Virus record (IMG/VR): IMGVR_UViG_3300035698_028676
Location: 1 to 64,000 of that record
Strand: one strand, 5' to 3'
Source: a virus
DNA: 64,000 nt
Shown piece after piece: positions 28,510 to 60,404 of this stretch (the first letter of the stretch is position 1; each line of letters begins with the position of its first letter). Under the pieces are notes generated by a model. That model did no database searches and was not told the origin of the DNA. It saw only the letters and a program-made list of their open reading frames with translations. The translations under genes were made by a program, and so were the position numbers.

Positions 28510-28567
28510 CTCATACCCTATAGAGAGAGTATGGTAAACTTTATATTATTAGAATGGAGGTGTTTAA

Positions 28568-32437: not shown

Positions 32438-32502
32438 GGGAAGTATCTATATAGAGAGAGTATAATTACTACTTTTAAATAGTAAAAGTATTTTAAAACA
32501 AG

Positions 32503-34899: not shown

Positions 34900-35226
34900 A
34901 TGGAAAATAAAATAAAAGATAATAAAGAAAAGAAAATAGTCCTATGGGAAGGTTTTCGTAAAGAACTTCCGTGGATATTATTTTGGGCACTATTGATTAT
35001 AATGTCTTATGGATATTATCAAGATAAAAAAATATGTGAAGAAGTTTTAGCTGATCCATGTTCGGCTTGTTACTCACTAAATAAAACAATGATGGATTCT
35101 GACTACTTAAAAGAATATACTATAAGTGATGATATACCTAAATATAAAGATGTTTATATAAACGAATCTGCTATCCCGATTGAAGATAAAAATCCCAACA
35201 GCAGAACTATTTCTATATACGAATAA
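34900..35226 (+). CDS. single-pass membrane protein, 108 aa
   Basis: Basic N-terminus, one membrane helix (about 22-41), then an ectodomain with CEEVLADPCSACYSLN (three Cys). Possibly a small envelope protein. Confidence 0.5.
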   Translation: MENKIKDNKEKKIVLWEGFRKELPWILFWALLIIMSYGYYQDKKICEEVLADPCSACYSLNKTMMDSDYLKEYTISDDIPKYKDVYINESAIPIEDKNPNSRTISIYE

Positions 35227-35654
35227 TGGCTGACAAATATATCCCACTAATTTATGCATATATTTATATGAAGATAAAAAAACAAATGAAAGCTGGTAGG
35301 ATATCTGCATCTACACTAAGAACAATTATAAAAAAAATAATCTTATGCGATAAAGATAGAGGCTCAAAAGGAATACCTAGAAGATACCGTTATGATATAA
35401 TAAAAGATCTTGTTGAATTGGGGCTTATAGAAAAGGTTGGAGCGATACGTAAAAATAATATATATATTGATAGTAATGATAATGTTTCAGAGGTCGCGGA
35501 AAGATTAAATGATTGGAATATTAGTGATAAGCTAAGGGAAGATGATAGTGTAAATGAGAAATTAGGTATTGCACTTGAGATATTAGATAAAGATAAAACT
35601 TATAGAGTAGTTAAAAGCCAATGTGATAAACAAGTGAACCAGGCTTTCTGGTAA
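35226..35654 (+). CDS. winged-helix-like protein, 142 aa
   Basis: Helical protein containing ISASTLRTIIKKIILCDKDR and IPRRYRYDIIKDLVELGLIE followed by a short hairpin, the order expected of a winged helix-turn-helix. It could be the regulator that separates the two promoter classes, but no operator link is demonstrable. Last plus-strand gene before the convergent junction. Confidence 0.55.
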   Translation: MADKYIPLIYAYIYMKIKKQMKAGRISASTLRTIIKKIILCDKDRGSKGIPRRYRYDIIKDLVELGLIEKVGAIRKNNIYIDSNDNVSEVAERLNDWNISDKLREDDSVNEKLGIALEILDKDKTYRVVKSQCDKQVNQAFW

Positions 35655-37028: not shown

Positions 37029-37106
37029 TTATTCATTACCCCCTTTCATTAAAGTTTTAAACGTTAAAGCATAAATCAAAGATTTATTCAATGTTATAAT
37101 TTTCAT
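37029..37106 (-). CDS. possible 25-aa leader peptide
   Basis: Minus frame from an ATG overlapping the preceding stop (ATGA) to a TAA one base before the 176-aa gene. The 3' end includes the Shine-Dalgarno for that gene. It may only couple translation. Confidence 0.25.
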   Translation of the reverse strand: MKIITLNKSLIYALTFKTLMKGGNE

Positions 37107-37360
37107 TCCTTTTCACCATCCGCAAAATCTCTTAAACTCCCAACCGTAGCAAATTCTCTTTCCATTCTAATCTTCCATTTACTACTAGGATCATGTTGCT
37201 TCTTCCTATTCATAGGTTTACAATCGTACTTATTCTTAACTCCATCATTGTCCCAATCACCCATTGGTTTCAGTCTAGGGTTAGCCCACTTAGCTTCAGC
37301 CCAATTCATCTTCCTTCTATCTTTTGGTTTCTTTATATCAAATATCTTTATCATTTCCAT
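37103..37360 (-). CDS. DxDxDG...DCKP motif protein, 85 aa
   Basis: Start placed at ATG 37360, one base after the preceding stop. N-terminal IKKPKDRRKMNWAEAKW is followed by PRLKPMGDWDNDGVKNKYDC and KPMNRKKQ. The DxDxDG loop resembles a calcium-binding thrombospondin-3/EF-hand-like loop, ending with a conserved Cys. One of four such paralogs in this operon. Confidence 0.65.
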   Translation of the reverse strand: MEMIKIFDIKKPKDRRKMNWAEAKWANPRLKPMGDWDNDGVKNKYDCKPMNRKKQHDPSSKWKIRMEREFATVGSLRDFADGEKE

Positions 37361-37361
37361 A

Positions 37362-37661
37362 TTATTCTTCGTAGTCATACTCGTATGACCCAACATTTTT
37401 AGCTCCTTGTTTTTTTAATAGTTTCTTTGCAGACTTTAGTTCTTCTTTCCCATGGACAAGATACTCTCCTGCTTGGCTATAAACCATATGATATTTTCCT
37501 TTTCCTTGCATCTTTCTATTCATTGGCTTACAATCGAATTGATTCTTAACTCCATCATTATCCCAATCACCCATCGGTTTTAATTTAGGAAATTTATGTT
37601 TAGCTTGTGCCCAGTTCATATTCTTTCTATCCATTGGTTTCTTTATTTTTATAAATTCCAT
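37362..37661 (-). CDS. DxDxDG...DCKP motif protein, 99 aa
   Basis: N-terminal IKKPMDRKNMNWAQAKHKFP, then KLKPMGDWDNDGVKNQFDC and KPMNRKMQ. The C-terminal half (YHMVYSQAGEYLVHGKEELK) differs from the paralogs and recalls a small beta-alpha domain. Adjacent paralog at 37103, so tandem duplication is likely. Confidence 0.65.
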   Translation of the reverse strand: MEFIKIKKPMDRKNMNWAQAKHKFPKLKPMGDWDNDGVKNQFDCKPMNRKMQGKGKYHMVYSQAGEYLVHGKEELKSAKKLLKKQGAKNVGSYEYDYEE

Positions 37662-37662
37662 A

Positions 37663-38106
37663 TTATACGTTCGCTCCTTCTACATTTCTTAAATGCTCTA
37701 TTGCTTCTTTCTTAGTAAATCCCCAGTCTTCTTTCATCATTCTTATTCTTTCTTTAGTTTCTGTATCAACATCCTGCCTTTTTCTATTCAAAGGTTTACA
37801 ATCAAACATATTCTTAACTCCATCTCTATCTTTATCACCCATAGGTTTAAGCTTAGGATACTTCCATTTAGTTTGAGACCAATTCATATCCTTATCTTTC
37901 ATAGGAGATTTAATTTTAAATGAAGGAATAGTCTTACTAAGTTTCCCTGCTTTAGAAATAGGTTTTAATAATGGGTTGCTATATCTTGCTTCTTCCCATT
38001 TATTATTTAGTCTCTTGGGTTTTCCAACTTTCAAGTTACCAAAGATAGGCGAAGCTGATTGCTTTCCCTTCTTCACTGTAGTCTTTATATCAAACATTGA
38101 TTTCAT
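37663..38106 (-). CDS. DxDxDG...DCKP motif protein, 147 aa
   Basis: Contains KWEEARYSNPLLKPI near residue 36, a degenerate first copy, and MNWSQTKWKYPKLKPMGDKD followed by RDGVKNMFDCKPLNRKRQ near 74-110. The C-terminal RIRMMKEDWGFTKKEAIEHL is helical. Thus one degenerate and one full module in a single protein. Confidence 0.65.
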   Translation of the reverse strand: MKSMFDIKTTVKKGKQSASPIFGNLKVGKPKRLNNKWEEARYSNPLLKPISKAGKLSKTIPSFKIKSPMKDKDMNWSQTKWKYPKLKPMGDKDRDGVKNMFDCKPLNRKRQDVDTETKERIRMMKEDWGFTKKEAIEHLRNVEGANV

Positions 38107-38267
38107 TTCTTTTTATAAGTAAGTTTTGCAGATTTCATTGCTTCACTTAACTTAACTGATTTATTTTTTACTTTCATGTCGGCATAAACCTTTTTCAGGT
38201 GCACCTGCCATGGGTTAACTGTCTTAACCTTTATCTTCTCTGTTTTTATTTTAATTTTTTGTTTCAT
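38103..38267 (-). CDS. small basic protein, 54 aa
   Basis: Start at ATG 38267, after a GGAGGT Shine-Dalgarno. Very Lys-rich N-terminus, then NPWQVHLKKVYADMK and LSEAMKSAKLTYKKK. A similar short W...KxY...SxxEAMxxAkxtY motif is found in basic DNA-associated proteins of large viruses; naming would be speculative. Confidence 0.5.
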   Translation of the reverse strand: MKQKIKIKTEKIKVKTVNPWQVHLKKVYADMKVKNKSVKLSEAMKSAKLTYKKK

Positions 38268-38296
38268 TTTTGTATTACCTCCGTTTAATTTAATTG

Positions 38297-39328
38297 TTAT
38301 TGCGTCCACGACTCCGGTTGAGGTACTGGGACTAATGCCTTTCTACCAGTCATTAAGTCTTCCTGTAATCTATAGCCTGGAGGAATCCCTGATTTACTAG
38401 TTTGTTGTTGCGGCCTTTGCCCATATTTTTTTATACCTTGAAGTTGAACCTGTTGTATTTGCTGCGGCTGAACTTGCTGGACAACCTGAGCTGGTACCTG
38501 TTGAATTTGCTCTTCAATTATTTGAGTCTCTTGTATCGTTTCTATCGGTAATTGTTCTTCCATTTGCTTAGCCTCTTTTATTGCTCTTAGTCTAGCCATC
38601 TTAGCATTTATTTCTTCTTGAGCTGCAGCTACTTCTTCTGGAGATAATCCTCTTTTTGCTAAAGCAAATCTCTGAGAAACTTCTGCTTTAGTCTCTACGG
38701 CCTGAGCTTGACTTTTTAATTGCTTTCTTAGTCTATGATAATCAACGGCAGATATAGGTCGACCTGTTCTTGGGTCTTTATATTTATATGATTGTTTTGG
38801 CCTTCCTGCACCAGCTTGTTTTTGCCCACTAGATGCTTTCCCTGCTTTTGCCTTAGTTCTTCCAACACCAGAAAATTTTCTAACTGTTCTAACTATCGCT
38901 CCTTGCTGTCTAGCCTTAGCTTGAGATATTTGTTTTTGAGTTGTAGGAGTTATTCTTCGTACAGCCTTCTCAGCTCCACTTGCAACCTTTTCTGATTTAG
39001 TCTTTACAGCCGCAACTACCTTATCTACACCCTTTGCAACACCACCAATAAAACTACTAAATGCTCCATCCTTAGATGGGTCAAGTGGTTTACAATCCCT
39101 AGAATTAATTAACCCATCAAAATCAGCGTCTGCAGTTGGGCTCATATTTGGGAACTTTTTCTTTAGTTGTTTCCAATTCATCTGTCTTGTTTTGTTGACG
39201 GAATATATAGGACTAACTTTATTATTAGATATTCTATTATTTATTGAAAAGACTAATGGGTTTTTTACAGGTACAACTCTCTTGACATTCTTGTTCTTAT
39301 TCTTATAACTAAGTTTACGTTTAACCAT
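38297..39328 (-). CDS. DxDxDG motif protein with basic and Gln-rich regions, 343 aa
   Basis: First gene after a class B promoter. Residues about 50-83: MNWKQLKKKFPNMSPTADAD, FDGLINSRDCKPLDPSKDG, the fourth module copy. Then a basic Ala/Lys region, GRPKQSYKYKDPRTGRPIS at about 178-196 (a short motif I recall from archaeal-virus proteins), and a Gln-rich tail (QQVPAQVVQQVQPQQIQQV). No membrane segment. Likely internal virion or DNA-associated protein. Confidence 0.6.
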   Translation of the reverse strand: MVKRKLSYKNKNKNVKRVVPVKNPLVFSINNRISNNKVSPIYSVNKTRQMNWKQLKKKFPNMSPTADADFDGLINSRDCKPLDPSKDGAFSSFIGGVAKGVDKVVAAVKTKSEKVASGAEKAVRRITPTTQKQISQAKARQQGAIVRTVRKFSGVGRTKAKAGKASSGQKQAGAGRPKQSYKYKDPRTGRPISAVDYHRLRKQLKSQAQAVETKAEVSQRFALAKRGLSPEEVAAAQEEINAKMARLRAIKEAKQMEEQLPIETIQETQIIEEQIQQVPAQVVQQVQPQQIQQVQLQGIKKYGQRPQQQTSKSGIPPGYRLQEDLMTGRKALVPVPQPESWTQ

Positions 39329-39334
39329 CTTTAT

Positions 39335-39388
39335 ATTACTAGTAATTCTTTATATTTAAATGTTGCGTTAATCGGGTTAACTCGATTA
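39335..39388 (-). promoter_or_regulatory. class B (late-type) promoter, copy 1
   Basis: The 38 bp at 39335-39372 are identical to those at 49579 and 57682. Reading on the minus strand: dyad TAATCGAGTTAACCCGATTA (39388-39369), BRE-like ACGCAACA, TATA ATTTAAATATAA (39361-39350), then palindrome ATTACTAGTAAT near the start site. The ATG at 39328 implies a near-leaderless mRNA. Confidence 0.85.
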
Positions 39389-45794: not shown

Positions 45795-48700
45795 TTATGT
45801 TTCCCTCGCAAATTTATTTAGTATATAACCAGCCGCGAATAAAGAAGTTATTAACGCAACAACATATTGATCCATCCAGGCATTTGTTCCTGTATAACTA
45901 ATTCTTAAAAATCCACCATATGATGCAAAGATTATTATGAAAGTCATAAACCCTATTGCTCCGCCTGCTGTAGAAAAGTCCCATCCTGTACTATAACTTA
46001 TATATCCCATAACTATAGAAAGCATAAGAAAGAAGAAAACAATTCTAGAAAACTCTTGTCTATTGCTATCATTACCGAATTCATTCAACTCTCTCGCATA
46101 TTTGAAGAATGAAACTAATGTTCCTCTGTTTGGGATATTTGTAGTCATAACACTCCAATATGCATCTGCATCAAGAATTATATATCCTTCTCCCATATCT
46201 ACATAGTAAATAGCCCTTATACTTCTATTAGTACCAACAGGAATAGATAAAGATAAATTACCACCTTTAGAATCACACCCGATAGTAGAACCTAATGATA
46301 CTGTATTATTATTGACTAGTTCCATCTTACACGAAACAATATTACTTAAATTTGCAGTAATGTTAAATAAGAATGTTTGTGTAGTATTAGGTAAAATAAT
46401 CTTACCAAGGTCTGGATAGACTGTCCAGAATAATCCTTCAGTGCTCGAGTTATAAGTTGCAGCTGAAGCTCCAGAGCCCATTACAACGGTATATGTAGAA
46501 GATGATGGTCTAACTGTAACAGTGACAGTTGAATAACCAGACTTAGTAAATGTTAATTCATGGTCATAATCCGGATTTAACCATCCAGTAAAACCTCCAG
46601 CTGAATCTGTAACACCTTGTTCAACCAATGTCCATACACCTGCAAATTCTCTTTTAACGACTACCTCTACTCCTTCTATCCCATTTCCAACCGTATCCTG
46701 TACTTGATATACAGAATAAGTACCATCTGCCGATGCCAACATATAAAGAGTTGGTGTTGAAGTTGTATTAGTTAAGTCTCCAGATGTTGACCACCTTCTT
46801 TGTGGATACCCTGTATCTGAATATTGTAACTCTAACGAACTTGTTATAGTTTTATCTGACGGTAAAAAACAAAAACCATAGGATTCATTAGCATCAGTAG
46901 TTGAATATAATAGTGTCTTATTGATAGTAGCATCACCTGAAGATAAATAGTAAGTCCACGTTGATGTATCAATTGAAGCATTAGTTGCTATAGTTGTTTC
47001 TTCATCTTCAAATGTAAAGTTTATATAAGGAGCAGTTAATGTTGTGTTACATAGGCCTAAGGCTATTCTTCCTGTAGACTGATTTATTTGAGGAGTGTCT
47101 ATGTCTTCAGCCCCATAAGATATTGTCCAAAAAAATGTATTATTAATTGCAGTAGCTGTAGATATAGCCGGAACAATTATGTCCCTACTGAATACCATCT
47201 CAGAATTATTTCCAGTTTTAGTTGTATCATAATATATACCACCGGTAGGATATGTCCCACCGTAATATAGGCTGGCAGTTATAGATTGACTTCCATTTGC
47301 AGTTAAATTTATTCTGAATCCTTCTCGTGCAGTTTCATATGTTGTTAAGTTATATTTTTCTGAATTACCAAATATTTTATATGTCCAGCTACGAGTAAAG
47401 TTGGCTTCATTTGCTGCGCTGTCATTCGCATAAAATGTTACGTTTTTTTGATCAGTTAAAATAAATGATGCATTTAAGTCAGCACACGTTACTGTTGTAT
47501 TTGTGTTGTTATAATTATACCAGCAACTTTCCAAACTGGTATCTGAAGATGTCCAGTTCAATGATATATTTTGTCCTGTATATGCATAATCAAAAGACGT
47601 TGTAGGATAAGTTATATTTATTATAGGAGTATTTGTATCTAAATATACTGTTCTATTCTCTGTCGCAAATCCACAATCCTCATCAGAATCACAAGCTTGG
47701 CAATTCCAATTAGTTGTTCCACTAATTGTTTGTGTAAATGAATTTGTATAATTCATTTGTAAAGTATTATAGTTTAATTCATATGTTTTGAATGTAGATG
47801 CAAATCCAGTAAATGAGCCACTATGACTATATGAAACTACTGTTTTTATCATTAATCCTTCAACATATTTATCTAAGACTACACTTCTGTTTACAAGAAG
47901 AGATGGGACAGCAGTATTATTTGTTGCTTCAACAGCCCATTCTGTTCCATTATAAGATTCTAATGTTATAACAATTGAACTTGTATCCATACTTCCAAGT
48001 CCCCAAGCAAATTGAGATTTATAATTTACAGTTCCAACTTTTCTGATACCAAATATTTGTCCTAATTCATTATCATGATTGTCAGTAGTACCTGAACTCC
48101 AAATTAATTTAGCAGCATAAGTATCATAATCTTCATCAAAAGCATTAGAAGTATTTACATTGCTATCTGGATTATATAATGTTTTTGATATACTTTGTGT
48201 ATCTCTAATCCCCCATGTTCCAGTGCTATCATCGAATAAACTTATATTGGTTAATTCTGCGCCTCCAGTAATATTTGCTGAACAATTAAAAGTACTCTCA
48301 AGAGTATGTAATGTATAATTATCAGAAGGATTAATCAAAATAACTTCTCCATCATCACCCAAAGAGATATTTCCCCACGTCGCCCATTCATTCAGAGTTT
48401 CACCATTAGTTTTAATAACCCAATCAACAGTTCTAGATGGTTTCTTTTCTGCATTTAATTTAACCTTGTAGTTACCAGCAGGCATCTCTGTTCCTAGGGA
48501 ATAAGTTTCTCCGTCTGCTTCGTTACCTTGTAACGTGGAATCATCAATAGATGATACATAAAATTGATAACTTCTAACGTCCTGCTTAATCTGAGACCCA
48601 TCATCTTTAATGGTATAGAAATCTACATCATCAATTAGAACTGAATCTTCGGATAAATAAATTTGCATAGTAGAAGAACAATCTATCCCACAAACATCAT

Positions 48701-48953
48701 CGTGTTGTGTTATTGCCCCACGGAATAATGTCTTACCCCAACCAAACATATTCTTAATCTCAATAGGCTTGTAAGTTTCCCAAATAGGATTGTATTCTAT
48801 GTTCTTATTACCTATAGAAAAAGATTCTCCGCTATTTATATTTTTAGAATTCTGAGAGTTATCTATATTCATAGCTGAAGCTATCGGTACAGCTGCAGCT
48901 ATAATAAACAACATTAATACAATTAAGAAAGATAAAGACTTTATATTTGCCAT
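45795..48953 (-). CDS. large exported ectodomain protein with C-terminal membrane domain
   Basis: A 1052-aa protein with signal peptide (LSFLIVLMLFIIAAAVPIAS), a long beta-rich ectodomain with many N-X-S/T sequons and a carboxypeptidase-regulatory-like segment (GIEGVEVVVKREFAGVW, DSAGGFTGWLNPDYDHEL), and about four membrane helices in the last ~110 residues. CDSDEDCG supplies a Cys cluster. Likely a receptor-binding or fusion-type envelope protein with the downstream membrane proteins. Confidence 0.7.
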   Translation of the reverse strand: MANIKSLSFLIVLMLFIIAAAVPIASAMNIDNSQNSKNINSGESFSIGNKNIEYNPIWETYKPIEIKNMFGWGKTLFRGAITQHDDVCGIDCSSTMQIYLSEDSVLIDDVDFYTIKDDGSQIKQDVRSYQFYVSSIDDSTLQGNEADGETYSLGTEMPAGNYKVKLNAEKKPSRTVDWVIKTNGETLNEWATWGNISLGDDGEVILINPSDNYTLHTLESTFNCSANITGGAELTNISLFDDSTGTWGIRDTQSISKTLYNPDSNVNTSNAFDEDYDTYAAKLIWSSGTTDNHDNELGQIFGIRKVGTVNYKSQFAWGLGSMDTSSIVITLESYNGTEWAVEATNNTAVPSLLVNRSVVLDKYVEGLMIKTVVSYSHSGSFTGFASTFKTYELNYNTLQMNYTNSFTQTISGTTNWNCQACDSDEDCGFATENRTVYLDTNTPIINITYPTTSFDYAYTGQNISLNWTSSDTSLESCWYNYNNTNTTVTCADLNASFILTDQKNVTFYANDSAANEANFTRSWTYKIFGNSEKYNLTTYETAREGFRINLTANGSQSITASLYYGGTYPTGGIYYDTTKTGNNSEMVFSRDIIVPAISTATAINNTFFWTISYGAEDIDTPQINQSTGRIALGLCNTTLTAPYINFTFEDEETTIATNASIDTSTWTYYLSSGDATINKTLLYSTTDANESYGFCFLPSDKTITSSLELQYSDTGYPQRRWSTSGDLTNTTSTPTLYMLASADGTYSVYQVQDTVGNGIEGVEVVVKREFAGVWTLVEQGVTDSAGGFTGWLNPDYDHELTFTKSGYSTVTVTVRPSSSTYTVVMGSGASAATYNSSTEGLFWTVYPDLGKIILPNTTQTFLFNITANLSNIVSCKMELVNNNTVSLGSTIGCDSKGGNLSLSIPVGTNRSIRAIYYVDMGEGYIILDADAYWSVMTTNIPNRGTLVSFFKYARELNEFGNDSNRQEFSRIVFFFLMLSIVMGYISYSTGWDFSTAGGAIGFMTFIIIFASYGGFLRISYTGTNAWMDQYVVALITSLFAAGYILNKFARET

Positions 48954-49569: not shown

Positions 49570-49578
49570 ATTCCTGAT

Positions 49579-49616
49579 ATTACTAGTAATTCTTTATATT
49601 TAAATGTTGCGTTAAT
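49579..49616 (-). promoter_or_regulatory. class B (late-type) promoter, copy 2
   Basis: Identical to copies 1 and 3 over 38 bp. The TATA (about 49594-49605) is 24 nt from ATG 49569. Only the promoter-proximal half of the TAAT dyad (TAATTGTG) is kept. Confidence 0.85.
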
Positions 49617-49682
49617 TGTGTAAGTAGAAGATAACTACAAAGATATAAAATTGATACTTTTATATCGATACAACGGAATGAA

Positions 49683-49767: not shown

Positions 49768-50775
49768 ATGAATCTATTAGGTAAAGAAATAAATTGGAAT
49801 AATCCTGCCGAGGTCAAGGAATATGAAAGAAAACGTAGGGAGGTTAATGTAGAACAAATAAAAGCTACAAAAAAAGCATACTACAAAAAAAATAAAGATA
49901 GATTGGTTATTAAAAATAAAGATAATTATGAAAAAAATAAAGGTAAGATAGCAATTCAAAGCAAAAAGTATAGAAAAGAGAATAAAGAGAAAATAAAAAT
50001 TCAGAGGAGAAAATATAGAGAAAAGAATAAAGAGAAAATAAAAATTGACAAAAAAGAATATTACAAAAAGAATAAAGATAAGATAGCTATTAAGGAGAAA
50101 GAACATTATAAAAATAATAAAGATGAGATTAATGCTTCTAGTATAAAGTATTATAAAGAGAACAAAAATCATATAAGAATTAAAAGTAAGGAATATTACA
50201 AAAAGAATAAAGATAAGGTATTAATTCAGTGCAAAAAATATCGAAAAAATAATAAAGAAATAGTAGCTATTAAGGAGAAAGAGTATTATGAAAAAAATAA
50301 AGATAAGGTATTAATTCAGTGCAAAAAATATCAAAAAAAGAATAAAGATAAGATAGCAATTCAAAGTAAAAAATATTATAAAAACAGTAAAAAAAATATA
50401 TGTATAGTATGTGGGGAACCGCACGCCTTAGATAAATTTTGCTCAAAAAAATGCATGGGAATTTATTGGACTGGAAAAGGACATCCGTTATGGAAAGGCG
50501 GACCAGCTCCTTATCCTACAGCATGGACAAGGAAATTTAAGAAATCAATTAGAGATAGAGATAATAATAAGTGTATGAGATGTGATAAGCCAAGAGAAGT
50601 CTTAGGACAGGCTTTATGTGTTCATCATATTGATGCCATTAAAGAAAATACATATCCAGAGAACTGCATCTCTCTTTGTCGTGCCTGCCATGGATTAACT
50701 GTAGGTAGAGAACACCTTTTTACTGAAGGTTTTAGAAAGATGCTATCTAAAAGATTTGGATATAAATATACCTAA
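49768..50775 (+). CDS. HNH homing-type endonuclease with Lys/Tyr repeats
   Basis: A 335-aa protein. Residues about 30-210 are about twelve repeats near 15 aa long (EYYKKNKDKIAIKEKEHY-like), then CIVCGEPHALDKFCSKKC and the HNH: RKFKKSIRDRDNNKCMRC, LCVHHIDAI, ENCISLCRACHG, ending RFGYKY. The C-terminal nuclease is shared with 10545 and 31686 proteins, but the DNA-contact region is different. The only plus-strand gene in the right half. Confidence 0.85.
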   Translation: MNLLGKEINWNNPAEVKEYERKRREVNVEQIKATKKAYYKKNKDRLVIKNKDNYEKNKGKIAIQSKKYRKENKEKIKIQRRKYREKNKEKIKIDKKEYYKKNKDKIAIKEKEHYKNNKDEINASSIKYYKENKNHIRIKSKEYYKKNKDKVLIQCKKYRKNNKEIVAIKEKEYYEKNKDKVLIQCKKYQKKNKDKIAIQSKKYYKNSKKNICIVCGEPHALDKFCSKKCMGIYWTGKGHPLWKGGPAPYPTAWTRKFKKSIRDRDNNKCMRCDKPREVLGQALCVHHIDAIKENTYPENCISLCRACHGLTVGREHLFTEGFRKMLSKRFGYKYT

Positions 50776-51615: not shown

Positions 51616-54600
51616 TCATATCCATTTTACCCTACCAACTTTTTTTGTTTGTGACTTTCTTTTCTTAATACCTTTAGCTGTGATAGCAGCGAACTCTCCC
51701 TTTGTAGATATTCTAGCTTTTCTTTTCTGGATGAATGTTGATGGCTTTTTGACTTCTTTACCTTTTACTATTCTGCCCCTGTATTCTTTCTTAAGTTCAG
51801 CTCTAGATATTGGGGCCAGATTTAGTGTACCTTCAATTCCTTTCCCCTTCTTTAATCTAAATGAAACTGATGCATCGGATTTTGTTTCTTTTCTACCTAA
51901 AGCTAAAGCTTCCCCTTCTGATAATGCGAATGGAGTTACATCTTCCCACTTCCCTCCTCTTTTAACTTCAACTTCATAACCTCGTTTAACTTTGGTCTTT
52001 GATTTAGTTTTGGGGATTCTAACTTTTACTTTCCCTAAATCAGGTATAATTATAACTGGAGGTACTGGTTTTGGTGGAGATGGCGACGGGCTTGGCGATG
52101 GTGAAGGCGAAGGACTAGGGCTAGGACTAGGACTTGGGCTTGGACTTGGACTAGGTGATGGACTAGGAGAAGGACTAGGACTAGGAGAAGGACTAGTAGT
52201 TATGCTAGGACTAGGTGAAGGACTAGGTGAAGGACTAGGTGAAGGTGAAGGACTAGGGCTTGGACTAGTAGTTATACTAGGACTAGGCGAAGGGCTAGGA
52301 GAAGGTCTAGGTCTAGGGGAAGGAGAAGGTGATGGCTTAAACTTAATTACAGGAGAAGGACTAGATACTGAAGATATTTTAATTAGTGAAGAAGGACTAG
52401 CCGCAGTTGAAGGCCTAGTGCTAGGAGAGCTTAAAGTAGATGTAGTAATTTTCGCCTCTGAAGGAATAGTTATTGGACTAACAACACGTCCAGTAAATGA
52501 AGTTTTTACAGGAGTCTTCAATGAGCTAGTAACATCAATTTTTATTCCAGATAAATATGCAGCCCTACTAGTATCAAGTTCTCCAAACAATGTCCCTACA
52601 TCTTCCGCAGCCCAATCTAATTTTCTATATTTTTCAAATAATTTATCTGCCCTTACCCCTTCAGCCTTAGTCCCAACTGTAGGATTAAAAACTTTGCTTT
52701 CTGCTAAACTTTTACCTATGGCGTAAGTATCAACAACATCTTTAGAACGATGCATAGGTGGCTCTATTATCTTCTTTCCAGTTAAAGGATCTTCCCACCA
52801 AGTGGCAGAAGCTCCAGCCTTTCTTATTAACTGTTCATATTCTGTTTGAGAAGCAACTCCTTCAACCTTTGTAGTAGGTCTATATTCCTCAAATCCATAT
52901 CTGAAACCTTTAGATAATTCTACTAAAGAAGTAGGATCATCATGATATTTTAATTCTATGCTCTTCTCTCCTTTAACATAAACTCCCATACCTTGTGCAT
53001 CATCTATTACTTCAGCAGTACTAGAACCTTTCCTTCTTAATTCCTCTGCAGCCTTTTCTCCCCATTTCCCAGCAGCAGTCTTAGAATTAAATTCTATTTC
53101 AATATCTCCAGGGGTTCTTTTAAACTCTAATTTTCTTTGAGCAATATCTGAGAAAGAACCATAAACTCTTTCATATGCTCCTTTATCTTTTTTCAAAAGT
53201 TTAAGTACAACCTTAATTTCATCTTTATCTAATGATTTAGTCTCTGTAGGAAACTTTTCTAAAAAACTACTTTTCTGCTCTCTTAGTAAATTTAATACAT
53301 CTTTAGTTATTTCTATCTTTTTTATACCTTGAGTACTGACCCCTAAAGCCTTTAGCACAGGTTTTTGAGTTAATACTTCTGCTTCTAATGCAGTCCCTGG
53401 ATAACTAGCAATATTTTTCTTAGACCATTCTGGGAATGCCATTCTTTTTACACCTGGTAATTTTTCTACTCCTGGAGTTCCAATTGCAACCCCTCTTTTA
53501 GTCCATCCTATTAAAGGTTTTACTACCCCCTCTTCTGGCTCAAGATAAAACCCCCTATAAAGAGATTCAGGTTCGGTAAATCTCGCAGCCTCAATCATTT
53601 CTACATCTTTTACCGCTTTAATAGTTTTTGGGAGTAAAGGAGACTCTGTACGAATAATTGCCTTTTTATCTGTAAGAATTTGTTGATAATCCCTGACCCT
53701 TATGCCATCTACTTCTTTTATAACATCTAATCTTTGTCCTCTGTATCCTATATCAACAACATCTGTTTTAGTGGCTGTATCGACAATTTTAACCTGTCTA
53801 CCAGTATTATCTATTTTTAAAACATTAGGATCTTTACCCTCGGCCTTATAGTTCTTTCTAGCTATTCTTAAAGCTTTCTTCGCAAACTCCCCAACTTTTT
53901 CTTTTACTAAAAAATAAACATCGGCATCACCAGGATTTCTAAAACTTCCTTTTGGAAGTTGCATTTTGACTGCCGCAGTACCTCCTAAATATCCTCCTTC
54001 CTTAGTAGCTGCCTTCGCCACATCTAATTGTAATTTATTTAATGTATCTAATGCCCTTGGCACTTTAACCTCAACATTACCATACTTCAAAAACTTTCCT
54101 GCTCCAGAGGCACCAACCCCCATAAGAACAAAATCTTTTGCGGCAGCTCCAGTCATTTTTCCCGCTTGAAAATAATCTTCTGCATCTCTTACATTTTTAT
54201 ATGTCTCTGCTCCATAAGTAACACCAAATCCTACTCCTGCTCCTAAAGTTCCAACATCTGCAGCAACACCTGCAACTTGAGCACCTTTTGTTCCAGCAAC
54301 GAGCCCACCTACTGTTCTAAATCCAAGACCTGCAGCCTTTACTCCAACCCCTAACCCATAACCTGCACCAATAAGAGCGACTTGTTTTAATGGTTTTTCT
54401 ATAACATCCTCTGCAATCCCTATACCAACTCCAGTTATAAAACCACCACCTTTAGCGACTACCTCAGGAACTCCTTTGTCAAGAAACGACGCTGTTGTCT
54501 CTTCAGATTTTATGGCTGCTTCCTCAAATGTAGTTGGTAAATCTAGGCCTGTTTGTGTTTCCACTACAGTCATACCAGTTCCAAATCCCTTTGCAAATGG

Positions 54601-57102
54601 ATCTGTTATCCCTCCCCTAAGCCCTTCGCTTATATCACCAAAAAAGCCTGGTATCTCTTTTGCTGTTTTAACTATCTTATCAGCTGCAACTGCAGGTCCA
54701 AGATAAGCTGCTTCAGTATAAGGTTTAGCTGCATCTTGAATCCTTTCATTTGCTAAAAGTGGGGCTAATGCCGTATCTATTACAATAGGAGCTACTGTTT
54801 CTTTTATTACTGGAGCTACGACTTCAGTTATCTTATCAGCTGCAACTGTAGTCCCAAGATAAGCTGCTTCGACATAAGGTTTAACTGCATCTTTAATTAT
54901 ACTTCCAGTTAACATAGAGCCCAAAGCTGTTTCTTTTATCAATGGGGTTACGACTTCAGCTATCTTATCGGCTGCAATTGAAGGTCCAAAAAAAGCTGCT
55001 TCAGTATAAGGTTTAGCTGCATCTTTAATTACACTTCCAGTTAACATAGAACCTAAAGCTGTCTCTTCTATTACTGGAGCTACTACTTTACTTATCTTAT
55101 CAGCTGCAACTGAAGGTCCAAGATATGCTGCTTCAACATAGGGTTTAGCTGCATCTTTAATTACTCTCCCAGTTAACATAGAACCTAAAGCTGTCTCTTT
55201 TATAGCTGAAGCTGTTACTTCAGTTATCTTATCAGCTGCAAGTGAAGGCCCAATGAAAGCTGTTTCAGTATAAGGTTTAGCTGAATCTTTAATTATTTTT
55301 GCAACTGAAAGTGAACTAATAGCCGTTCCTTTTATAGCTGGGACTATTGTTTCCTTAATAACTACTCCAGCTTCTTTAATTAATGGAACCGCTTTCTCTT
55401 CAACCCTTTTTCCTAACGATAATATAGATGTTGCTTTTTTTTCTACTGCACCTGCTACTGTTGTTCCAATATAATCTAAAGCATCTGCTCTAGCTTCTCC
55501 AACACCTGCTGTAAATTCTTTGACTGATGGGATTACCTTTTCTTTAATAACTACTCCAGTTCCTTTGATTACTGGAGCTACTTTTTCCTTAACATCTTTT
55601 CCTAAAGATAAAACAGATGTTGCTTTTTCTTCAACTGCATCTACTACTGTAGTCCCAATGTAGCTCAATGTATCTGATCTAACTTTTCCAAACTCTTTGA
55701 TTACTGGAATTACCTTTTCTTTAATAACCGGAGCTACAACTTCAGTTATTTTATCAGCCACAATTGAAGGTCCAAGATATGCTGTTCTAGTATAAGGATT
55801 AGCTGCTTCCCTGACTGCACTTGCAGTAGAAATAGATCCTATAGCGGTATCTCTTATAACTGGAGCTACTATTTTCGCAACTCTTCCACCCAAAGATATA
55901 CTTTCTGCCGTATCCGCAACTTTTGTTCCAATATAGTCTAGGGTATCTGCCCTTGCTTCTCTTATTGCTGGAATTATCTTTTCCTTATTAACCCATGTCT
56001 CTGCGGCTACAACTGACAAAGCACCAGTAGCTGCACCTAATCCTGCACCTAATGTTTCACCACTACCTTTTAAAACATCTTTAATAACCTTTGCCCCTAT
56101 TTCATTATACGCCTGTGGATTATAAAGTTTCCTATTTGTAAATGGAGTATAGACATCTCTTCCAGTTCCTGGAGTTGGTCTTCCTCCTTCGAACATCTCT
56201 CCATAAGTTTCTCTTGGTGTATTTCCGGTAAGCCTCTCCCATTGAGCAGCAGGAAAATTTGTTATCTTTTGTATTATAGTTTTTTTAGGAGCAGCTTCAA
56301 CTGACCATTGTGGGGCAGAAGGTAAAGGTGTTTTTTTAAATAATTCTGGATGAGATAATGCAAAGGCCGCCTGTCTATCTTGTGACATCTCTATTCCCTG
56401 TCTACCTACTGCTACAGGAATCTGAGTAGCCGTAGCAAGATCTGGAGAAGCTAAAGATTGCAATTCACCAGTAAGAACATCTTTATATGCAACCTGTGGC
56501 GCATCAAATTGTTGTCCATATCTTTCTTGTAAGCCCTCTAGAGACATGCTCGCCTGATCTGGCCCACCTGAAACACCAACAAGTTGTCCTTTATCATAAA
56601 TAAGATTAAACCCAGCCTCATTTAAATTTGATTTAAATTCGGACAAATCGCCCCGAGCCAACTTCTGTTCTGTTCTCATTTGAGAATCTCTTGGCGACCA
56701 ATCTGTTGTTGTTCCATATGGTGTAGAATATTCGTAGCCTAATACTTGCGTTACGTAGCCCTTCCCTAACTTTCCCATAATCGCCCTTGGAGCTATCCCT
56801 TTCTCTTTGGCATATTGCATTATCCCGGCAGGAGTTTTTTTAAATTCTTCAATTCTTTGTCCATAAGAAGCAACTTGTTCTTCATCTTGCGCTGCTTGTT
56901 GTGATTGTCCTGCTAACCTTTCTCTTTCAGACCTAACTGCCTGTTTCTTGGGAACTCCAGCTATTCCCTTTATAGCCCTAAGTGCCCTTTGTGTTCTTGT
57001 CTCAGGCAAAGCCGCCTGTCTAGATGCTATACCAGATTGAGCTCTAGCTATACCTTCTCTACTAGCTGCTACTTGAGCTTGTGCTTCCTGAATACTAACC
57101 AT
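51616..57102 (-). CDS. giant 1828-aa repeat protein with NTase-like and Ser-Pro regions
   Basis: Residues 1-90 form a coiled coil (QAQVAASREGIARAQSGIAS). About 430-805 carry 40-45-residue repeats (AADKITEVVAPVIKETALGS, SVIKDAAKPYTEAAFFGPS), then hydrophobic Gly/Ala-rich segments. About 1030-1160 has GGTAAVKMQLPKGSFRNPGD, ADVYF, a nucleotidyltransferase-like G-G-x...DxD pattern, and a second GDIEIEF is near 1336. A (SP)n linker at about 1584-1672 precedes a basic C-terminal domain. Candidate tape-measure, injected or scaffold protein. Confidence 0.6.
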   Translation of the reverse strand: MVSIQEAQAQVAASREGIARAQSGIASRQAALPETRTQRALRAIKGIAGVPKKQAVRSERERLAGQSQQAAQDEEQVASYGQRIEEFKKTPAGIMQYAKEKGIAPRAIMGKLGKGYVTQVLGYEYSTPYGTTTDWSPRDSQMRTEQKLARGDLSEFKSNLNEAGFNLIYDKGQLVGVSGGPDQASMSLEGLQERYGQQFDAPQVAYKDVLTGELQSLASPDLATATQIPVAVGRQGIEMSQDRQAAFALSHPELFKKTPLPSAPQWSVEAAPKKTIIQKITNFPAAQWERLTGNTPRETYGEMFEGGRPTPGTGRDVYTPFTNRKLYNPQAYNEIGAKVIKDVLKGSGETLGAGLGAATGALSVVAAETWVNKEKIIPAIREARADTLDYIGTKVADTAESISLGGRVAKIVAPVIRDTAIGSISTASAVREAANPYTRTAYLGPSIVADKITEVVAPVIKEKVIPVIKEFGKVRSDTLSYIGTTVVDAVEEKATSVLSLGKDVKEKVAPVIKGTGVVIKEKVIPSVKEFTAGVGEARADALDYIGTTVAGAVEKKATSILSLGKRVEEKAVPLIKEAGVVIKETIVPAIKGTAISSLSVAKIIKDSAKPYTETAFIGPSLAADKITEVTASAIKETALGSMLTGRVIKDAAKPYVEAAYLGPSVAADKISKVVAPVIEETALGSMLTGSVIKDAAKPYTEAAFFGPSIAADKIAEVVTPLIKETALGSMLTGSIIKDAVKPYVEAAYLGTTVAADKITEVVAPVIKETVAPIVIDTALAPLLANERIQDAAKPYTEAAYLGPAVAADKIVKTAKEIPGFFGDISEGLRGGITDPFAKGFGTGMTVVETQTGLDLPTTFEEAAIKSEETTASFLDKGVPEVVAKGGGFITGVGIGIAEDVIEKPLKQVALIGAGYGLGVGVKAAGLGFRTVGGLVAGTKGAQVAGVAADVGTLGAGVGFGVTYGAETYKNVRDAEDYFQAGKMTGAAAKDFVLMGVGASGAGKFLKYGNVEVKVPRALDTLNKLQLDVAKAATKEGGYLGGTAAVKMQLPKGSFRNPGDADVYFLVKEKVGEFAKKALRIARKNYKAEGKDPNVLKIDNTGRQVKIVDTATKTDVVDIGYRGQRLDVIKEVDGIRVRDYQQILTDKKAIIRTESPLLPKTIKAVKDVEMIEAARFTEPESLYRGFYLEPEEGVVKPLIGWTKRGVAIGTPGVEKLPGVKRMAFPEWSKKNIASYPGTALEAEVLTQKPVLKALGVSTQGIKKIEITKDVLNLLREQKSSFLEKFPTETKSLDKDEIKVVLKLLKKDKGAYERVYGSFSDIAQRKLEFKRTPGDIEIEFNSKTAAGKWGEKAAEELRRKGSSTAEVIDDAQGMGVYVKGEKSIELKYHDDPTSLVELSKGFRYGFEEYRPTTKVEGVASQTEYEQLIRKAGASATWWEDPLTGKKIIEPPMHRSKDVVDTYAIGKSLAESKVFNPTVGTKAEGVRADKLFEKYRKLDWAAEDVGTLFGELDTSRAAYLSGIKIDVTSSLKTPVKTSFTGRVVSPITIPSEAKITTSTLSSPSTRPSTAASPSSLIKISSVSSPSPVIKFKPSPSPSPRPRPSPSPSPSPSITTSPSPSPSPSPSPSPSPSPSPSITTSPSPSPSPSPSPSPSPSPSPSPSPSPSPSPSPSPSPSPSPPKPVPPVIIIPDLGKVKVRIPKTKSKTKVKRGYEVEVKRGGKWEDVTPFALSEGEALALGRKETKSDASVSFRLKKGKGIEGTLNLAPISRAELKKEYRGRIVKGKEVKKPSTFIQKRKARISTKGEFAAITAKGIKKRKSQTKKVGRVKWI
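52085..52345 (-). repeat. Ser-Pro coding tandem repeat
   Basis: Six-base SP repeats encode a flexible (SP)n linker with a few SITTSP interruptions. It is protein-coding low complexity, not CRISPR. Confidence 0.85.
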
Positions 57103-57121: not shown

Positions 57122-57502
57122 CTAGTAACTTATTATCCCCCTTCTTACTTTTCTACGCATTTGTACATTTGGCGTTAGATTAATTTTAGGTGCAACTGGT
57201 GCTACTTTTACTGATACTGTACTAAATGTAATTCCATCTTTAACTATTGGCTCTTGTGGAATACTATTATATGTATTCAAATCATCAAGATATTTATTGA
57301 TAGTTGTAAGATTCTTTTTTGCCATAACTCCACCTTTCCTTACATCTTTCATATAGCTTCTATCTTCTTGTCTAGCAACTCTATTCTGCATTCCCCCATG
57401 TAATTGTGCTTTAGAGTATTTAAGTGGATGGTCTAATTGTGCAAAATAATTTCTCCTTTCAATTATTTGTAATTTCAAGTTTTCTGCTTGTGTTTTATCC
57501 AT
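57122..57502 (-). CDS. hypothetical protein, 126 aa
   Basis: Helical and basic N-terminus (LQIIERRNYFAQLDHPLKYS), then a beta-like C-terminus (KDGITFSTVSVKVAPVAPKI). It precedes the 1828-aa gene and overlaps the 56-aa gene by one base (TAATG). No family recognised. Confidence 0.5.
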   Translation of the reverse strand: MDKTQAENLKLQIIERRNYFAQLDHPLKYSKAQLHGGMQNRVARQEDRSYMKDVRKGGVMAKKNLTTINKYLDDLNTYNSIPQEPIVKDGITFSTVSVKVAPVAPKINLTPNVQMRRKVRRGIISY

Positions 57503-57672: not shown

Positions 57673-57681
57673 ATTACTAAT

Positions 57682-57719
57682 ATTACTAGTAATTCTTTAT
57701 ATTTAAATGTTGCGTTAAT
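57682..57719 (-). promoter_or_regulatory. class B (late-type) promoter, copy 3
   Basis: Identical 38 bp to copies 1 and 2. The TATA (about 57697-57708) is 24 nt from ATG 57672. It abuts the 42-bp array to its right. Confidence 0.85.
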
Positions 57720-57861
57720 TGTGCTAGCACAATTATCCACTGCTGAAAAGCAGCTGTTAATCGAGTTAACTCGATTAGCCATTACGTAAACGTAACTGTT
57801 AATCGTGTAAACATAATTAGTAATTATAAATAAACAACTATTAATCATTAGTCTCCCGACC
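57716..57861. repeat. 42-bp period array of nested dyads
   Basis: TAAT starts recur at 57716, 57758, 57800 and 57842, exactly 42 bp apart. Unit 1 begins TAATTGTGCTAGCACAATTA and unit 2 TAATCGAGTTAACTCGATTA, both perfect 20-bp palindromes. Unit 3 is imperfect and unit 4 mostly degenerate. At offset 24 units 1 and 2 hold a second stem (CTGCT-GAAA-AGCAG and TTACG-TAAA-CGTAA). Upstream of class B promoter copy 3. Confidence 0.85.
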
Positions 57862-57864
57862 AGT

Positions 57865-57905
57865 CATAAAAAATAAAAAAATATAAAAGGTGGGTTAATC
57901 CCACC
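57865..57905 (-). terminator. hairpin plus U-rich tract
   Basis: GGTGGG-ATTAA-CCCACC (57905-57889) followed on the minus strand by T-rich sequence, 31 nt after the S-layer-like stop. Confidence 0.7.
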
Positions 57906-57936
57906 CCTTATATAATAAGAAATCGTTTCTGTTTAT

Positions 57937-60117
57937 CTAAATAATAACCTTCTCGCCATCAGCGATATTGATATTATTACTTAATAGATATTGGATACCT
58001 CTTGTAGTATCTTCTGCGTTATAACCTGCAACTACTGTTGCAAATTGACCCTCACCCATATCGAATGTCTGAATCAATACTTTCCCGGCTACAACTCCTG
58101 TAATCGCTGTGAATTCTGCTCCACATGCTTTACCGCCTAGTAAGCTAGCTGATACTGTATTAATACAACTTCCTCCGACAACAATGATATTCTTACCTGA
58201 AGCTGCTGCTAAATTAGCATCAGTTATCTTCGCGATACCTAACTCTGCAGCTGTTGGTTTAACAACGGTTGCGTTGGACGCAACTGTATCTTCCTCACTA
58301 CCTAGTACTGAAACCTGGGCGTATAATTGTTCACTAGGAACTTTGAATACAACCTTATCGTCATCAGCATTATTCTGTGGGCTCTCTACAATAGTACCAT
58401 AATAATCCATTACATCATTATCATATTTTCCAATAGATTTACCATCAACTTTCACATCACTAGATGCTGCATCCTCTTCTATAGTCCCAAGATATGTATT
58501 ATTGCCTCCTAGAGAAATTTCAATATTACTATTTTTATAACTCCCTGTTATAGATAATGTATCTCCACCTGCGGAAATTCCAATTACCATTTCAGTTTCA
58601 TCTGCAATTAAATCTGCAATATCAATGTAAGAGTTTTTTACAGTCACCAATGCGGCTTCTGCTGCTGTTACATCTGCTTCTGCTGTCACTACTGCTGCTT
58701 GTGTAATAGAATTATTCGTCACAAGTACTGTGGCCTCCGCATTTGTTAATGCAAGTTCTGCTGCTGTTACATTTGCTTCTGCTGTTGTTACTGCTGATAT
58801 ATCAATATTCGCGTATCGTACCGGCTTTCCAGTAGAATAATCTTCCGCTAAATCCATATAATAAACTTGTAAAAGTCCGTTACCAGAATTCTGCAGATAT
58901 AATGTATCTGTCTCTATATCATCTTTTAGTAAAAAAGAATCTTCGTTATTACCCTTAATAACCATAACATCTACATCACTAATTCTTGCTCCATTTCCGC
59001 TAGAACTTCCATTCTCATACATATCAATATTATCGAAGTAAACTTCGTAATCATGATAATCTACATCAGTTAAGCTATCAAAACTCACTGTTGCAAAATC
59101 GTTTGGGAAAATGTATTCTCCTCCTTCATAAACAACATCATCTTCTTCGTCAACTTGTCTTAAGTCATACCTAACACCAATCCATCCATCTTCACTTCCA
59201 GGATTAGATATACTCCAAACCCACTCTGGGTCATCGTTATCTTGTCCTATAAATGCATCTCCATCGGAATATTCCTCAGAAATATCTCCTCCAGCATAGA
59301 TTTCAACTTTGCTAGTTCTAGTATCAGAATCTGTATAGTAAACGTCGTCTACTTTAACCTCTACTCCATTAATAGTCTTTTTCTTACCTTCTTTGATAAG
59401 AACTCCATTAATAAATGCACTGTCATCATAAATACTATCTATTGTTAATGAAACTCCATTAACTGTAGTAGTAGCCCCTTCTGCAAGAAAAATCTTTTCT
59501 GCGTTAGTTACTGTAATAGAATTACTATCTATATCTTCAATAAGATATTCATCTCCAAGAATTGATACCTCTAAAGACTCTGCATCTGTATCACCTAGTT
59601 CTCTAACATTTTTAACAAAGACATCTTCCTCAAATATAAGCTTATATTCTAGGCCTTTATCATTTGTCAAAACTACATCTTCAAAATCGTTATTGTCTAA
59701 AGTAGTCTGAATTTTAAGATCACCGATTGCAAGCTCTTCATGAACATTATAGCTATCTGTGTTGTCTCCATCGTTCCACTCTATTTTACCATCAAATAAA
59801 GAAGGAATTTTGTTATCAGTTAACGTAGATTTAATCTTCCCACTCAAACCTAATCCAAGCTCTGCTTCATCCTCAGTGACTCCTGCAGAAAAAATCCTTT
59901 CAAGTTCTTCTGGGATAATAATTGTATCTGCCAAACTATTTACTAAACTATCCGCTGCTGTAGAATCTGTCGCTGCTGCGCTAACACCATAGACAACTGC
60001 TACATTAGCTTCATTGTTATTAGTAAATGGAATTGGATATACTCCTGCTGAAACTAACATCATACTTATTAAAAATAGACTAAGAAATCCTGTCGTCTTT
60101 TTAAATGTTTTTTTCAT
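57937..60117 (-). CDS. S-layer-like protein
   Basis: A 726-aa protein. Signal peptide (TTGFLSLFLISMMLVSAGVY), then VVYGVSAAATDSTAADSLVN, a long acidic beta-rich body and the C-terminal SGKNIIVVGGSCINTVSASL, CGAEFTAITG, VAGYNAEDTTRGIQYLL. I recall this N- and C-terminal combination from S-layer proteins of small-genome archaea, where they form the cell coat. An insert at about 440-500 repeats VTAAEAALVTxxN. Class A-like promoter upstream. Confidence 0.7.
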   Translation of the reverse strand: MKKTFKKTTGFLSLFLISMMLVSAGVYPIPFTNNNEANVAVVYGVSAAATDSTAADSLVNSLADTIIIPEELERIFSAGVTEDEAELGLGLSGKIKSTLTDNKIPSLFDGKIEWNDGDNTDSYNVHEELAIGDLKIQTTLDNNDFEDVVLTNDKGLEYKLIFEEDVFVKNVRELGDTDAESLEVSILGDEYLIEDIDSNSITVTNAEKIFLAEGATTTVNGVSLTIDSIYDDSAFINGVLIKEGKKKTINGVEVKVDDVYYTDSDTRTSKVEIYAGGDISEEYSDGDAFIGQDNDDPEWVWSISNPGSEDGWIGVRYDLRQVDEEDDVVYEGGEYIFPNDFATVSFDSLTDVDYHDYEVYFDNIDMYENGSSSGNGARISDVDVMVIKGNNEDSFLLKDDIETDTLYLQNSGNGLLQVYYMDLAEDYSTGKPVRYANIDISAVTTAEANVTAAELALTNAEATVLVTNNSITQAAVVTAEADVTAAEAALVTVKNSYIDIADLIADETEMVIGISAGGDTLSITGSYKNSNIEISLGGNNTYLGTIEEDAASSDVKVDGKSIGKYDNDVMDYYGTIVESPQNNADDDKVVFKVPSEQLYAQVSVLGSEEDTVASNATVVKPTAAELGIAKITDANLAAASGKNIIVVGGSCINTVSASLLGGKACGAEFTAITGVVAGKVLIQTFDMGEGQFATVVAGYNAEDTTRGIQYLLSNNINIADGEKVII

Positions 60118-60262: not shown

Positions 60263-60356
60263 CTAACATCAGTGTTAGTTCCACGTTTCTTCGAAACGCA
60301 GTAGTAGTTATACGCTTCTCTGAAACGTTATAATAAAATAACTAAAGTAAAAAGAT

Positions 60357-60381
60357 GGTATAGGGGTTTATCCCCTATACC
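60357..60381 (-). terminator. perfect hairpin terminator
   Basis: GGTATAGGGG-ATAAA-CCCCTATACC on the minus strand followed by a T-run. It ends the operon whose last gene stops at 60405. Confidence 0.75.
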
Positions 60382-60404
60382 ATAAAATCAAAAATACTTT
60401 AGCG

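What the first reader, a model, noticed from the sequence alone, without database searches (positions are those of the whole stretch)
57716..57861. 42-bp periodic array of nested palindromes next to a late promoter
Seen: TAAT starts at 57716, 57758, 57800 and 57842, an exact 42-bp step, which is four turns of B-DNA. Two units are perfect 20-bp dyads, and two carry a second stem at the same offset. One dyad variant abuts promoter copy 1 and a half-site abuts copy 2. The dyad sequences differ although geometry is kept. Inference: helically phased cooperative activator binding, or iterons of an origin.
Basis: partly seen in the sequence, partly recalled or inferred. Interest (0 to 1): 0.78.

Follow-up and report, generated by a model that had tools for sequence, protein, structure and literature searches.

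The report
Phased operator array at viral promoter
In a virus that probably infects tiny Pacearchaeota archaea, a row of mirror-image DNA sites spaced exactly two helix turns apart leads up to one of three identical promoters for its structural genes, most likely as landing sites for a virus-controlled switch protein; the arrangement resembles known archaeal gene switches but is unusually regular.

Summary
The basic step is 21 bp (two turns): five dyads in alternating sequence types A-B-A-B-A are centred exactly 21 bp apart, so same-type sites repeat every 42 bp. The array scores 40/50 matched pairs; the best in 20 shuffled windows was 30. The fourth unit is only a TAAT half-site.

The first A dyad abuts the BRE/TATA of promoter P1. 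The same 39-bp promoter occurs twice more (P2, P3), with a 9/10 A dyad or half-site in the same register. All four good A sites in the window lie upstream of this promoter. The 65.6-kb record is an archaeal virus of probable Pacearchaeota host. A second promoter class, about ten copies on mostly plus-strand genes, carries a different dyad at the same distance from TATA.

Best reading: a cooperative operator array (upstream activating sequence) for a dimeric regulator of the structural-gene promoters, in the manner of Ptr2, Ss-LrpB or TFB-RF1. Activation and the protein's identity are inferred. Iterons are disfavoured. Distant relatives place unrelated dyads or repeats next to some promoters but lack this array. 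The mirrored differences between units 1 and 2 are unexplained.

The parts
57716..57735 (.). Dyad A1, TAATTGTGCTAGCACAATTA, perfect, promoter-proximal, overlaps the start of the promoter block
57737..57756 (.). Dyad B1, CCACTGCTGAAAAGCAGCTG; 5-bp stem CTGCT/AGCAG at 57740-57753
   Evidence: second stem at the same offset as in B2
57758..57777 (.). Dyad A2, TAATCGAGTTAACTCGATTA, perfect
57779..57798 (.). Dyad B2, CCATTACGTAAACGTAACTG; 5-bp stem TTACG/CGTAA at 57782-57795
57800..57819 (.). Dyad A3, TAATCGTGTAAACATAATTA, imperfect (7/10 pairs)
57821..57847 (.). Degenerate distal end: 6/10 dyad centred 57830.5 and a TAAT half-site at 57842 on the 42-bp register
   Evidence: may be chance in AT-rich DNA
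57680..57718 (-). Promoter P1 block TTAACGCAACATTTAAATATAAAGAATTACTAGTAATAT; BRE region ACGCAACA 57715-57708, TATA box TTTAAATA 57707-57700
   Evidence: identical in P1, P2, P3
57502..57672 (-). First small ORF behind P1 (56 aa, MKKYINRNNLYDK...); ATG 28 nt after the TATA box, so a leaderless or very short leader is likely
   Evidence: read directly
57122..57502 (-). Second gene of the P1 operon (126 aa, no family)
51616..57102 (-). Giant 1828-aa protein of the P1 operon, presumed virion protein
49577..49615 (-). Promoter P2, same 39-bp block
49613..49620 (-). Half-site CACAATTA (proximal half of dyad A) at P2; distal half missing
39333..39371 (-). Promoter P3, same 39-bp block
39369..39388 (.). 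Dyad A at P3, TAATCGAGTTAACCCGATTA (minus strand), 9/10 pairs
57881..57913 (-). Intrinsic-terminator-like hairpin plus T run ending the upstream transcript (gene 57937-60117), before the array
35226..35654 (+). Candidate regulator with winged-helix-like sequence near the end of the plus-strand gene block; homologue in relative G085:C27 at 5207-5491
   Evidence: (inconclusive)

Best explanation
The region is a multi-site operator array, an upstream activating sequence, of promoter P1 on the minus strand, which drives a structural-gene operon of an archaeal virus of probable Pacearchaeota host. A dimeric regulator binds the A dyad that touches the BRE, about two helix turns from the TATA box, and helps TBP/TFB settle on a promoter whose BRE looks weak (ACGCAACA against VRAAA). 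Further dimers, perhaps of a second protein on the B dyads, bind every 21 bp on the same DNA face and stabilise the complex cooperatively, making P1 the most strongly or most steeply controlled of three promoters of one regulon. Shown: array, phasing, promoter identity, recurrence of the A site at the same place at P3 and as a half-site at P2. Inferred: binding, cooperativity, activation, timing and the protein's identity.
For: Array far above chance with a unique 21-bp optimum. All four good A sites in the window lie upstream of the shared promoter, two of them (A1 and the P3 site) abutting it, with a half-site at P2. The three promoters are identical over 39 bp and unrelated further upstream except for the dyad. 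A second promoter class carries a different dyad at 21.0-22.5 bp from the TATA centre in most copies, the same position as the P1/P3 dyad at 22 bp, so a dyad abutting the BRE is this virus's general promoter layout. Upstream transcription is closed by a terminator-like hairpin before the array, which fits DNA-level action. Published archaeal activators use a dimer site a few bp upstream of BRE with extra sites two or three turns away (PMC2995911), and activators recruiting TFB work on weak BREs (PMC5937170). Relatives: G085:C27 has an 8/10 dyad about 20 bp upstream of a late-region TATA; G141:C15 has three TTTGTTAACA elements, all upstream of late-region TATA boxes, two of them exactly 21 bp apart; G372:C37 has GTATAC pairs abutting two promoters.
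Against: No binding or expression data. The relatives' operators are unrelated in sequence, sit at varying distance from TATA (about 12 to 20 bp) and none has the alternating array. In the relatives, an automated comparison of dyads upstream of all TATA-like sites against control positions showed no clear general excess, so the relatives' cases are selected examples. The weak-BRE argument rests on a Pyrococcus consensus; host promoters could not be read from Pacearchaeota DNA. P2 works, if it does, with only a half-site. Mirrored differences between units are more than degenerate dimer sites need.
Confidence: 0.7

Rival explanations
1. Repressor operator array: a dimeric viral repressor covers the dyads and, through the dyad that overlaps the BRE edge, blocks TFB until late in infection or in the lysogenic state, as in lambda-like or F55-like control.
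For: Dyad A1 overlaps the first bases of the conserved promoter block and lies next to the BRE. The virus encodes a tyrosine recombinase (5308-5952, Pfam Phage_integrase), so a lysogenic state is possible. Several operators bound cooperatively are common for viral regulators such as AvtR and F55 (PMC5569661).
Against: Sites lie upstream of BRE, not over TATA or the start site; upstream is the usual place for archaeal activators (PMC5937170). The array extends away from the promoter.
Confidence: 0.15
2. Leftover of tandem duplication: a 42-bp A+B unit duplicated locally and is decaying, only A1 being functional.
For: Exact 42-bp spacing and decay with distance from the promoter (10, 10, 7 and 0 of 10 pairs for A1 to A4); P3 has one dyad only.
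Against: A2 is perfectly symmetric although it differs from A1 at six positions, and B2 is as symmetric as B1; neutral decay would break symmetry.
Confidence: 0.06
3. Replication origin with iterons bound by an initiator, which happens to lie beside a promoter.
For: Direct 42-bp repeats with dyads in an AT-rich intergenic region.
Against: The same A site stands at another promoter, with a half-site at a third; cumulative GC skew turns at about 35.7 kb, where gene orientation switches, not at 57.7 kb; no recognised replication gene nearby; only three good A units.
Confidence: 0.04
4. Structured element: the stems act as RNA hairpins in a read-through transcript or as DNA hairpins/cruciforms recognised for shape (packaging, recombination, processing).
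For: Twelve of 14 differences between units 1 and 2 are mirrored and keep pairing; B stems keep centre and flanks while stem letters change; folding energy beats shuffles (z -4.0 as DNA, -6.1 as RNA including the terminator), though any array of perfect dyads would fold well, so the energies add little.
Against: A terminator-like hairpin precedes the array and the promoter follows it, so it should be little transcribed; an exact 21-bp register shared with the TATA palindrome at 57704.5 is expected for double-helix binding, not for hairpins.
Confidence: 0.05

Closest known systems
Ptr2 / Ss-LrpB upstream activating sites (archaeal Lrp-family activators)
   Same: Dimer site just upstream of BRE at constrained distance, with additional sites upstream; site spacing of two or three helix turns on one face is reported for the family (PMC2995911).
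   Different: Those sites are degenerate, belong to cellular genes, and alternation of two dyad types is not described there; no Lrp-family protein was identified in this virus.
TFB-RF1 of Pyrococcus furiosus
   Same: Palindromic site just upstream of a weak BRE; activator recruits TFB (PMC5937170).
   Different: Single 13-nt palindrome TCTGAANTTCAGA, no phased array, unrelated sequence.
AvtR (AFV6) and F55 (SSV1), ribbon-helix-helix regulators of archaeal viruses
   Same: Virus-encoded regulators with several operator copies; AvtR spreads along about 100 nt and both activates and represses (PMC5569661).
   Different: F55 sites are tandem repeats overlapping BRE or start site and used for repression; no ribbon-helix-helix protein was recognised among the small proteins scanned here.
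Plasmid/phage iterons
   Same: Regularly spaced repeats in AT-rich DNA.
   Different: Here the repeats belong to a promoter regulon; no initiator gene or skew switch at the site.

Membership tests
Archaeal BRE-proximal activator site (Ptr2, Ss-LrpB, TFB-RF1 type) | Dyad site immediately upstream of BRE/TATA at a constrained distance | tested here: met
   Dyad centre to TATA centre 22 bp at P1 and P3; half-site in the same register at P2
Archaeal BRE-proximal activator site (Ptr2, Ss-LrpB, TFB-RF1 type) | Extra sites two or three helix turns further upstream (Ptr2/Ss-LrpB) | tested here: met
   Five dyads at 21-bp steps at P1; P3 has one site only
Archaeal BRE-proximal activator site (Ptr2, Ss-LrpB, TFB-RF1 type) | Weak BRE or weak TATA that makes the promoter depend on the activator | tested here: inconclusive
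   ACGCAACA deviates from VRAAA, but the host's BRE consensus could not be derived
Archaeal BRE-proximal activator site (Ptr2, Ss-LrpB, TFB-RF1 type) | Bound by a dimeric HTH protein that raises transcription | not testable with these tools
   No binding or expression data; candidate 35226-35654 unproven
Lrp/AsnC regulator as the binder | Lrp-family protein encoded in the virus | tested here: inconclusive
   None among the proteins scanned with Pfam, but not every small ORF was scanned and the host could supply one
Iteron-type replication origin | Repeats restricted to the origin next to an initiator gene | tested here: not met
   Same A site upstream of another promoter; neighbouring genes match no replication family
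Iteron-type replication origin | Strand-skew switch at the site | tested here: not met
   Cumulative GC skew maximum near 35.7 kb, none at 57.7 kb; skew is confounded by gene orientation
Structured RNA element | Match to a known RNA family | tested here: not met
   Only a tRNA at 8971-9044 in the window reaches Rfam thresholds
Structured RNA element | Compensatory changes across related sequences | tested here: inconclusive
   Mirrored changes between units 1 and 2 within one genome; no homologous array in relatives to test

The most novel reading that the evidence does not exclude
Two different dimeric regulators occupy alternate 21-bp slots (A and B) to build one ordered nucleoprotein filament at P1, an enhanceosome-like integrator in an archaeal virus, and the symmetry of each slot is itself maintained, either by selection for perfect dyads or by palindrome-templated repair, so that slot sequence can drift while mirror symmetry persists.
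Probability: 0.12. Interest if true: 0.72.

Novelty: new variant of a known kind. Interest (0 to 1): 0.48.

Why it matters
Little is known of how viruses of DPANN archaea time their genes (own knowledge; one literature search found nothing on point). Here one record yields two promoter classes with separate dyad operators in the same position, a ready-made regulon map, plus a strikingly regular array that can be tested in vitro with purified transcription factors. The mirrored drift of the dyads is a concrete small puzzle about how palindromic operators evolve.

Tried and rejected
Similarity of the region to phage records: none. Protein relatives of late proteins in IMG/VR by exact peptide patterns: none. 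Promoter pattern in IMG/VR: two hits, L007 and L008, read and judged chance because no dyad precedes the box; combined dyad+TATA pattern and second-class pattern: none. Both promoter patterns in 180 Pacearchaeota genomes with up to 3 mismatches: none, so these operators are not an obvious host regulon. Hits of the 1828-aa protein in six genomes lie in or beside its Pro-Ser repeat tail and were discarded. Winged-helix candidate: no PDB match, model pLDDT 44, so no fold search was run. Host BRE consensus: not readable. Resemblance of early leader CTATAGATAGAGTATG to the SSV1 F55 motif ATAGATAGAGT: match counts not above shuffles over the window, left as a remark. Bacterial sigma-70 scan: irrelevant here. 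A folding job with the relative's homologue was not submitted because the tool does not list such loci as allowed.

Full report
What was claimed. The sequence bears this out. The two 20-bp dyads at 57716-57735 and 57758-57777 are perfect; only one other perfect 20-bp dyad exists in the 64-kb window, a simple AT repeat at 673.

Finer anatomy. Scoring 10-pair dyads along the region shows centres at 57725.5 (10/10), 57746.5 (6/10), 57767.5 (10/10), 57788.5 (7/10) and 57809.5 (7/10), with a weak one at 57830.5 (6/10) and nothing at 57851.5 (0/10). The step is 21 bp, two helix turns. Two sequence types alternate: A, TAATYGWGYT and its mirror, and B, a 5-bp stem around a 4-nt centre with conserved flanks. 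This gives the 42-bp period. The summed score of five dyads at 21-bp steps is 40/50; the maximum over 20 Markov-shuffled windows is 30, and no other period from 18 to 29 gives more than 31 in the real window. The palindrome ATTTAAAT inside the TATA box, centred at 57704.5, lies on the same 21-bp grid.

Mirrored differences. Units 1 and 2 differ at 14 of 42 positions; 12 of these are six mirrored pairs that keep base pairing (random placement reaches six mirrored pairs with p = 3e-4). Unit 3 does not show this. Symmetry is thus kept while sequence changes. A dimer with relaxed specificity would tolerate this but does not require it; selection for perfect symmetry or copying of one arm from the other are possible. 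I have no test that separates them.

The promoter. On the minus strand the array runs into TTAACGCAACATTTAAATATAAAGAATTACTAGTAATAT, found identically at P1 (57718-57680), P2 (49615-49577) and P3 (39371-39333), while sequences further upstream are unrelated apart from the dyad. TTTAAATA is an archaeal-type TATA box; start codons lie 25 to 28 nt beyond it, so the transcripts are probably leaderless or nearly so, whereas later genes carry ribosome-binding sites such as GGAGGT. P3 has a 9/10 A dyad in the same register; P2 has only the proximal half CACAATTA, next to an HNH-endonuclease gene on the other strand (49768-50775), whose arrival may have removed the rest (inference). A profile of the A site finds four strong matches in the window, all upstream of this promoter, and nothing else above the level of shuffled sequence. 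P1-P3 precede the minus-strand blocks with giant presumed virion proteins and small hydrophobic proteins; 'late' is inferred from this.

The organism. The window is part of a 65,642-bp virus record that ends inside an open frame, so it is incomplete. Its STT3/AglB gene (28948-31668) is up to about 50% identical to Pacearchaeota genes; the host is inferred from this. It also has a tyrosine recombinase, radical SAM enzymes and glycosyltransferases.

A second promoter class. While checking the surroundings I found about ten copies of a different promoter, dyad TACTAC-NNN-GTAGTA or a variant, then YCGRAAG and TTTATAAA, at nine plus-strand sites and one minus-strand site (60256-60234); eight matches against none in shuffles. 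One plus-strand copy, 5065, has no dyad. Dyad centres lie 21.0-22.5 bp from the TATA centre in most copies, the same geometry as in P1 and P3 (22 bp). Two promoter classes with class-specific dyads at one fixed place is strong internal evidence that the dyads are regulator sites, and it argues against an origin.

Relatives. Exact-pattern searches of IMG/VR, phage records and 180-200 Pacearchaeota genomes found nothing close. A protein search of 371 genomes of the phylum with the 1052-aa product of 45795-48953 did: G085:C27, G043:C5, G372:C45, G372:C37, G141:C11 and G141:C15. G085:C27 (24.7 kb) shares the recombinase, several plus-strand genes including the winged-helix-like protein, then convergent minus-strand structural genes. 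Its late-region promoter has the dyad ACATAGTCATATATCTATGT (8/10) centred about 20 bp upstream of TTTATATA; such a dyad occurs at 0.14% of centres in that contig. G141:C15 has three TTTGTTAACA elements, all upstream of late-region TATA boxes, two of them exactly 21 bp apart; G372:C37 has GTATAC pairs abutting two promoters. These cases were picked by eye; the automated comparison over all TATA-like sites gave no clear general excess. None has the alternating array.

Mechanism. A review states that archaeal activators of the Lrp family bind a dimer site a few bp upstream of BRE at a constrained place, with extra sites, and that neighbouring sites are spaced two or three turns along one face (PMC2995911); activators such as TFB-RF1 help TFB onto weak BREs (PMC5937170). 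The present array fits this layout. The P1-P3 BRE (ACGCAACA) departs from the Pyrococcus VRAAA consensus while the second class (CGRAAG) fits it, suggesting that P1-P3 need help and the others need less. This is suggestive only, since the host's own consensus could not be read. A terminator-like hairpin (57913-57881) closes upstream transcription before the array, which favours a DNA-level role.

Which protein. The 35226-35654 product lies near the end of the plus-strand block and has a homologue in the corresponding place of G085:C27, 45% identical over the aligned part. Pfam gives only a TrmB match at E = 0.42, and the single-sequence model is poor (pLDDT 44). It is a candidate, no more.

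Verdict. A real, unusually regular operator array of a known functional kind. Activation is preferred to repression; origin and RNA readings are unlikely. The alternating A/B register and mirrored drift are the parts a specialist would not expect.

Noticed in passing
2205, 3513, 5065, 6012, 17806, 24293, 28485, 32413, 49694 (+) and 60256-60234 (-): Second promoter class: dyad TACTACnnnGTAGTA (or variant; absent at 5065) abutting YCGRAAG and TTTATAAA, about ten copies; the minus-strand copy at 60 kb has additional dyads upstream (CGTTTCGAAGAAACG, ACTAACActgaTGTTAGT).
   Followed up: partly
2241-2256, 28518-28533, 32449-32464: Several copies of that class share CTATAGAKAGAGTATG near the expected transcript start; at 2243 it contains ATAGATAGAGT, the consensus reported for SSV1 repressor F55. 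Not above chance as a window-wide count.
   Followed up: partly
49768-50775: HNH-endonuclease gene on the plus strand next to P2; carries a promoter of the second class and may have cut off the distal half of the P2 dyad.
   Followed up: no
28948-31668: Virus-encoded STT3/AglB oligosaccharyltransferase, closest to Pacearchaeota, within a block of glycosylation-type genes (glycosyltransferases, sugar kinase/nucleotidyltransferase, epimerase-like).
   Followed up: partly
37103-39328: Four neighbouring genes share a motif MNWxQxKxKxPKLKPMGDxDxDGVKNxxDCKPxN; no relatives found in IMG/VR or GTDB genomes by pattern.
   Followed up: partly
8971-9044: tRNA-Val (anticodon TAC) encoded by the virus.
   Followed up: no
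L114 1-20000 and L115 1-4704 (G085:C27, 24.7 kb): Compact relative in a Pacearchaeota genome bin with recombinase, MCM-like protein and two small hydrophobic proteins resembling spindle-shaped-virus capsid proteins in character (impression, untested).
   Followed up: partly
60340-60400 and 57881-57913, minus strand: Strong hairpins followed by T runs after minus-strand genes, bacterial-style terminator shapes in an archaeal virus.
   Followed up: no
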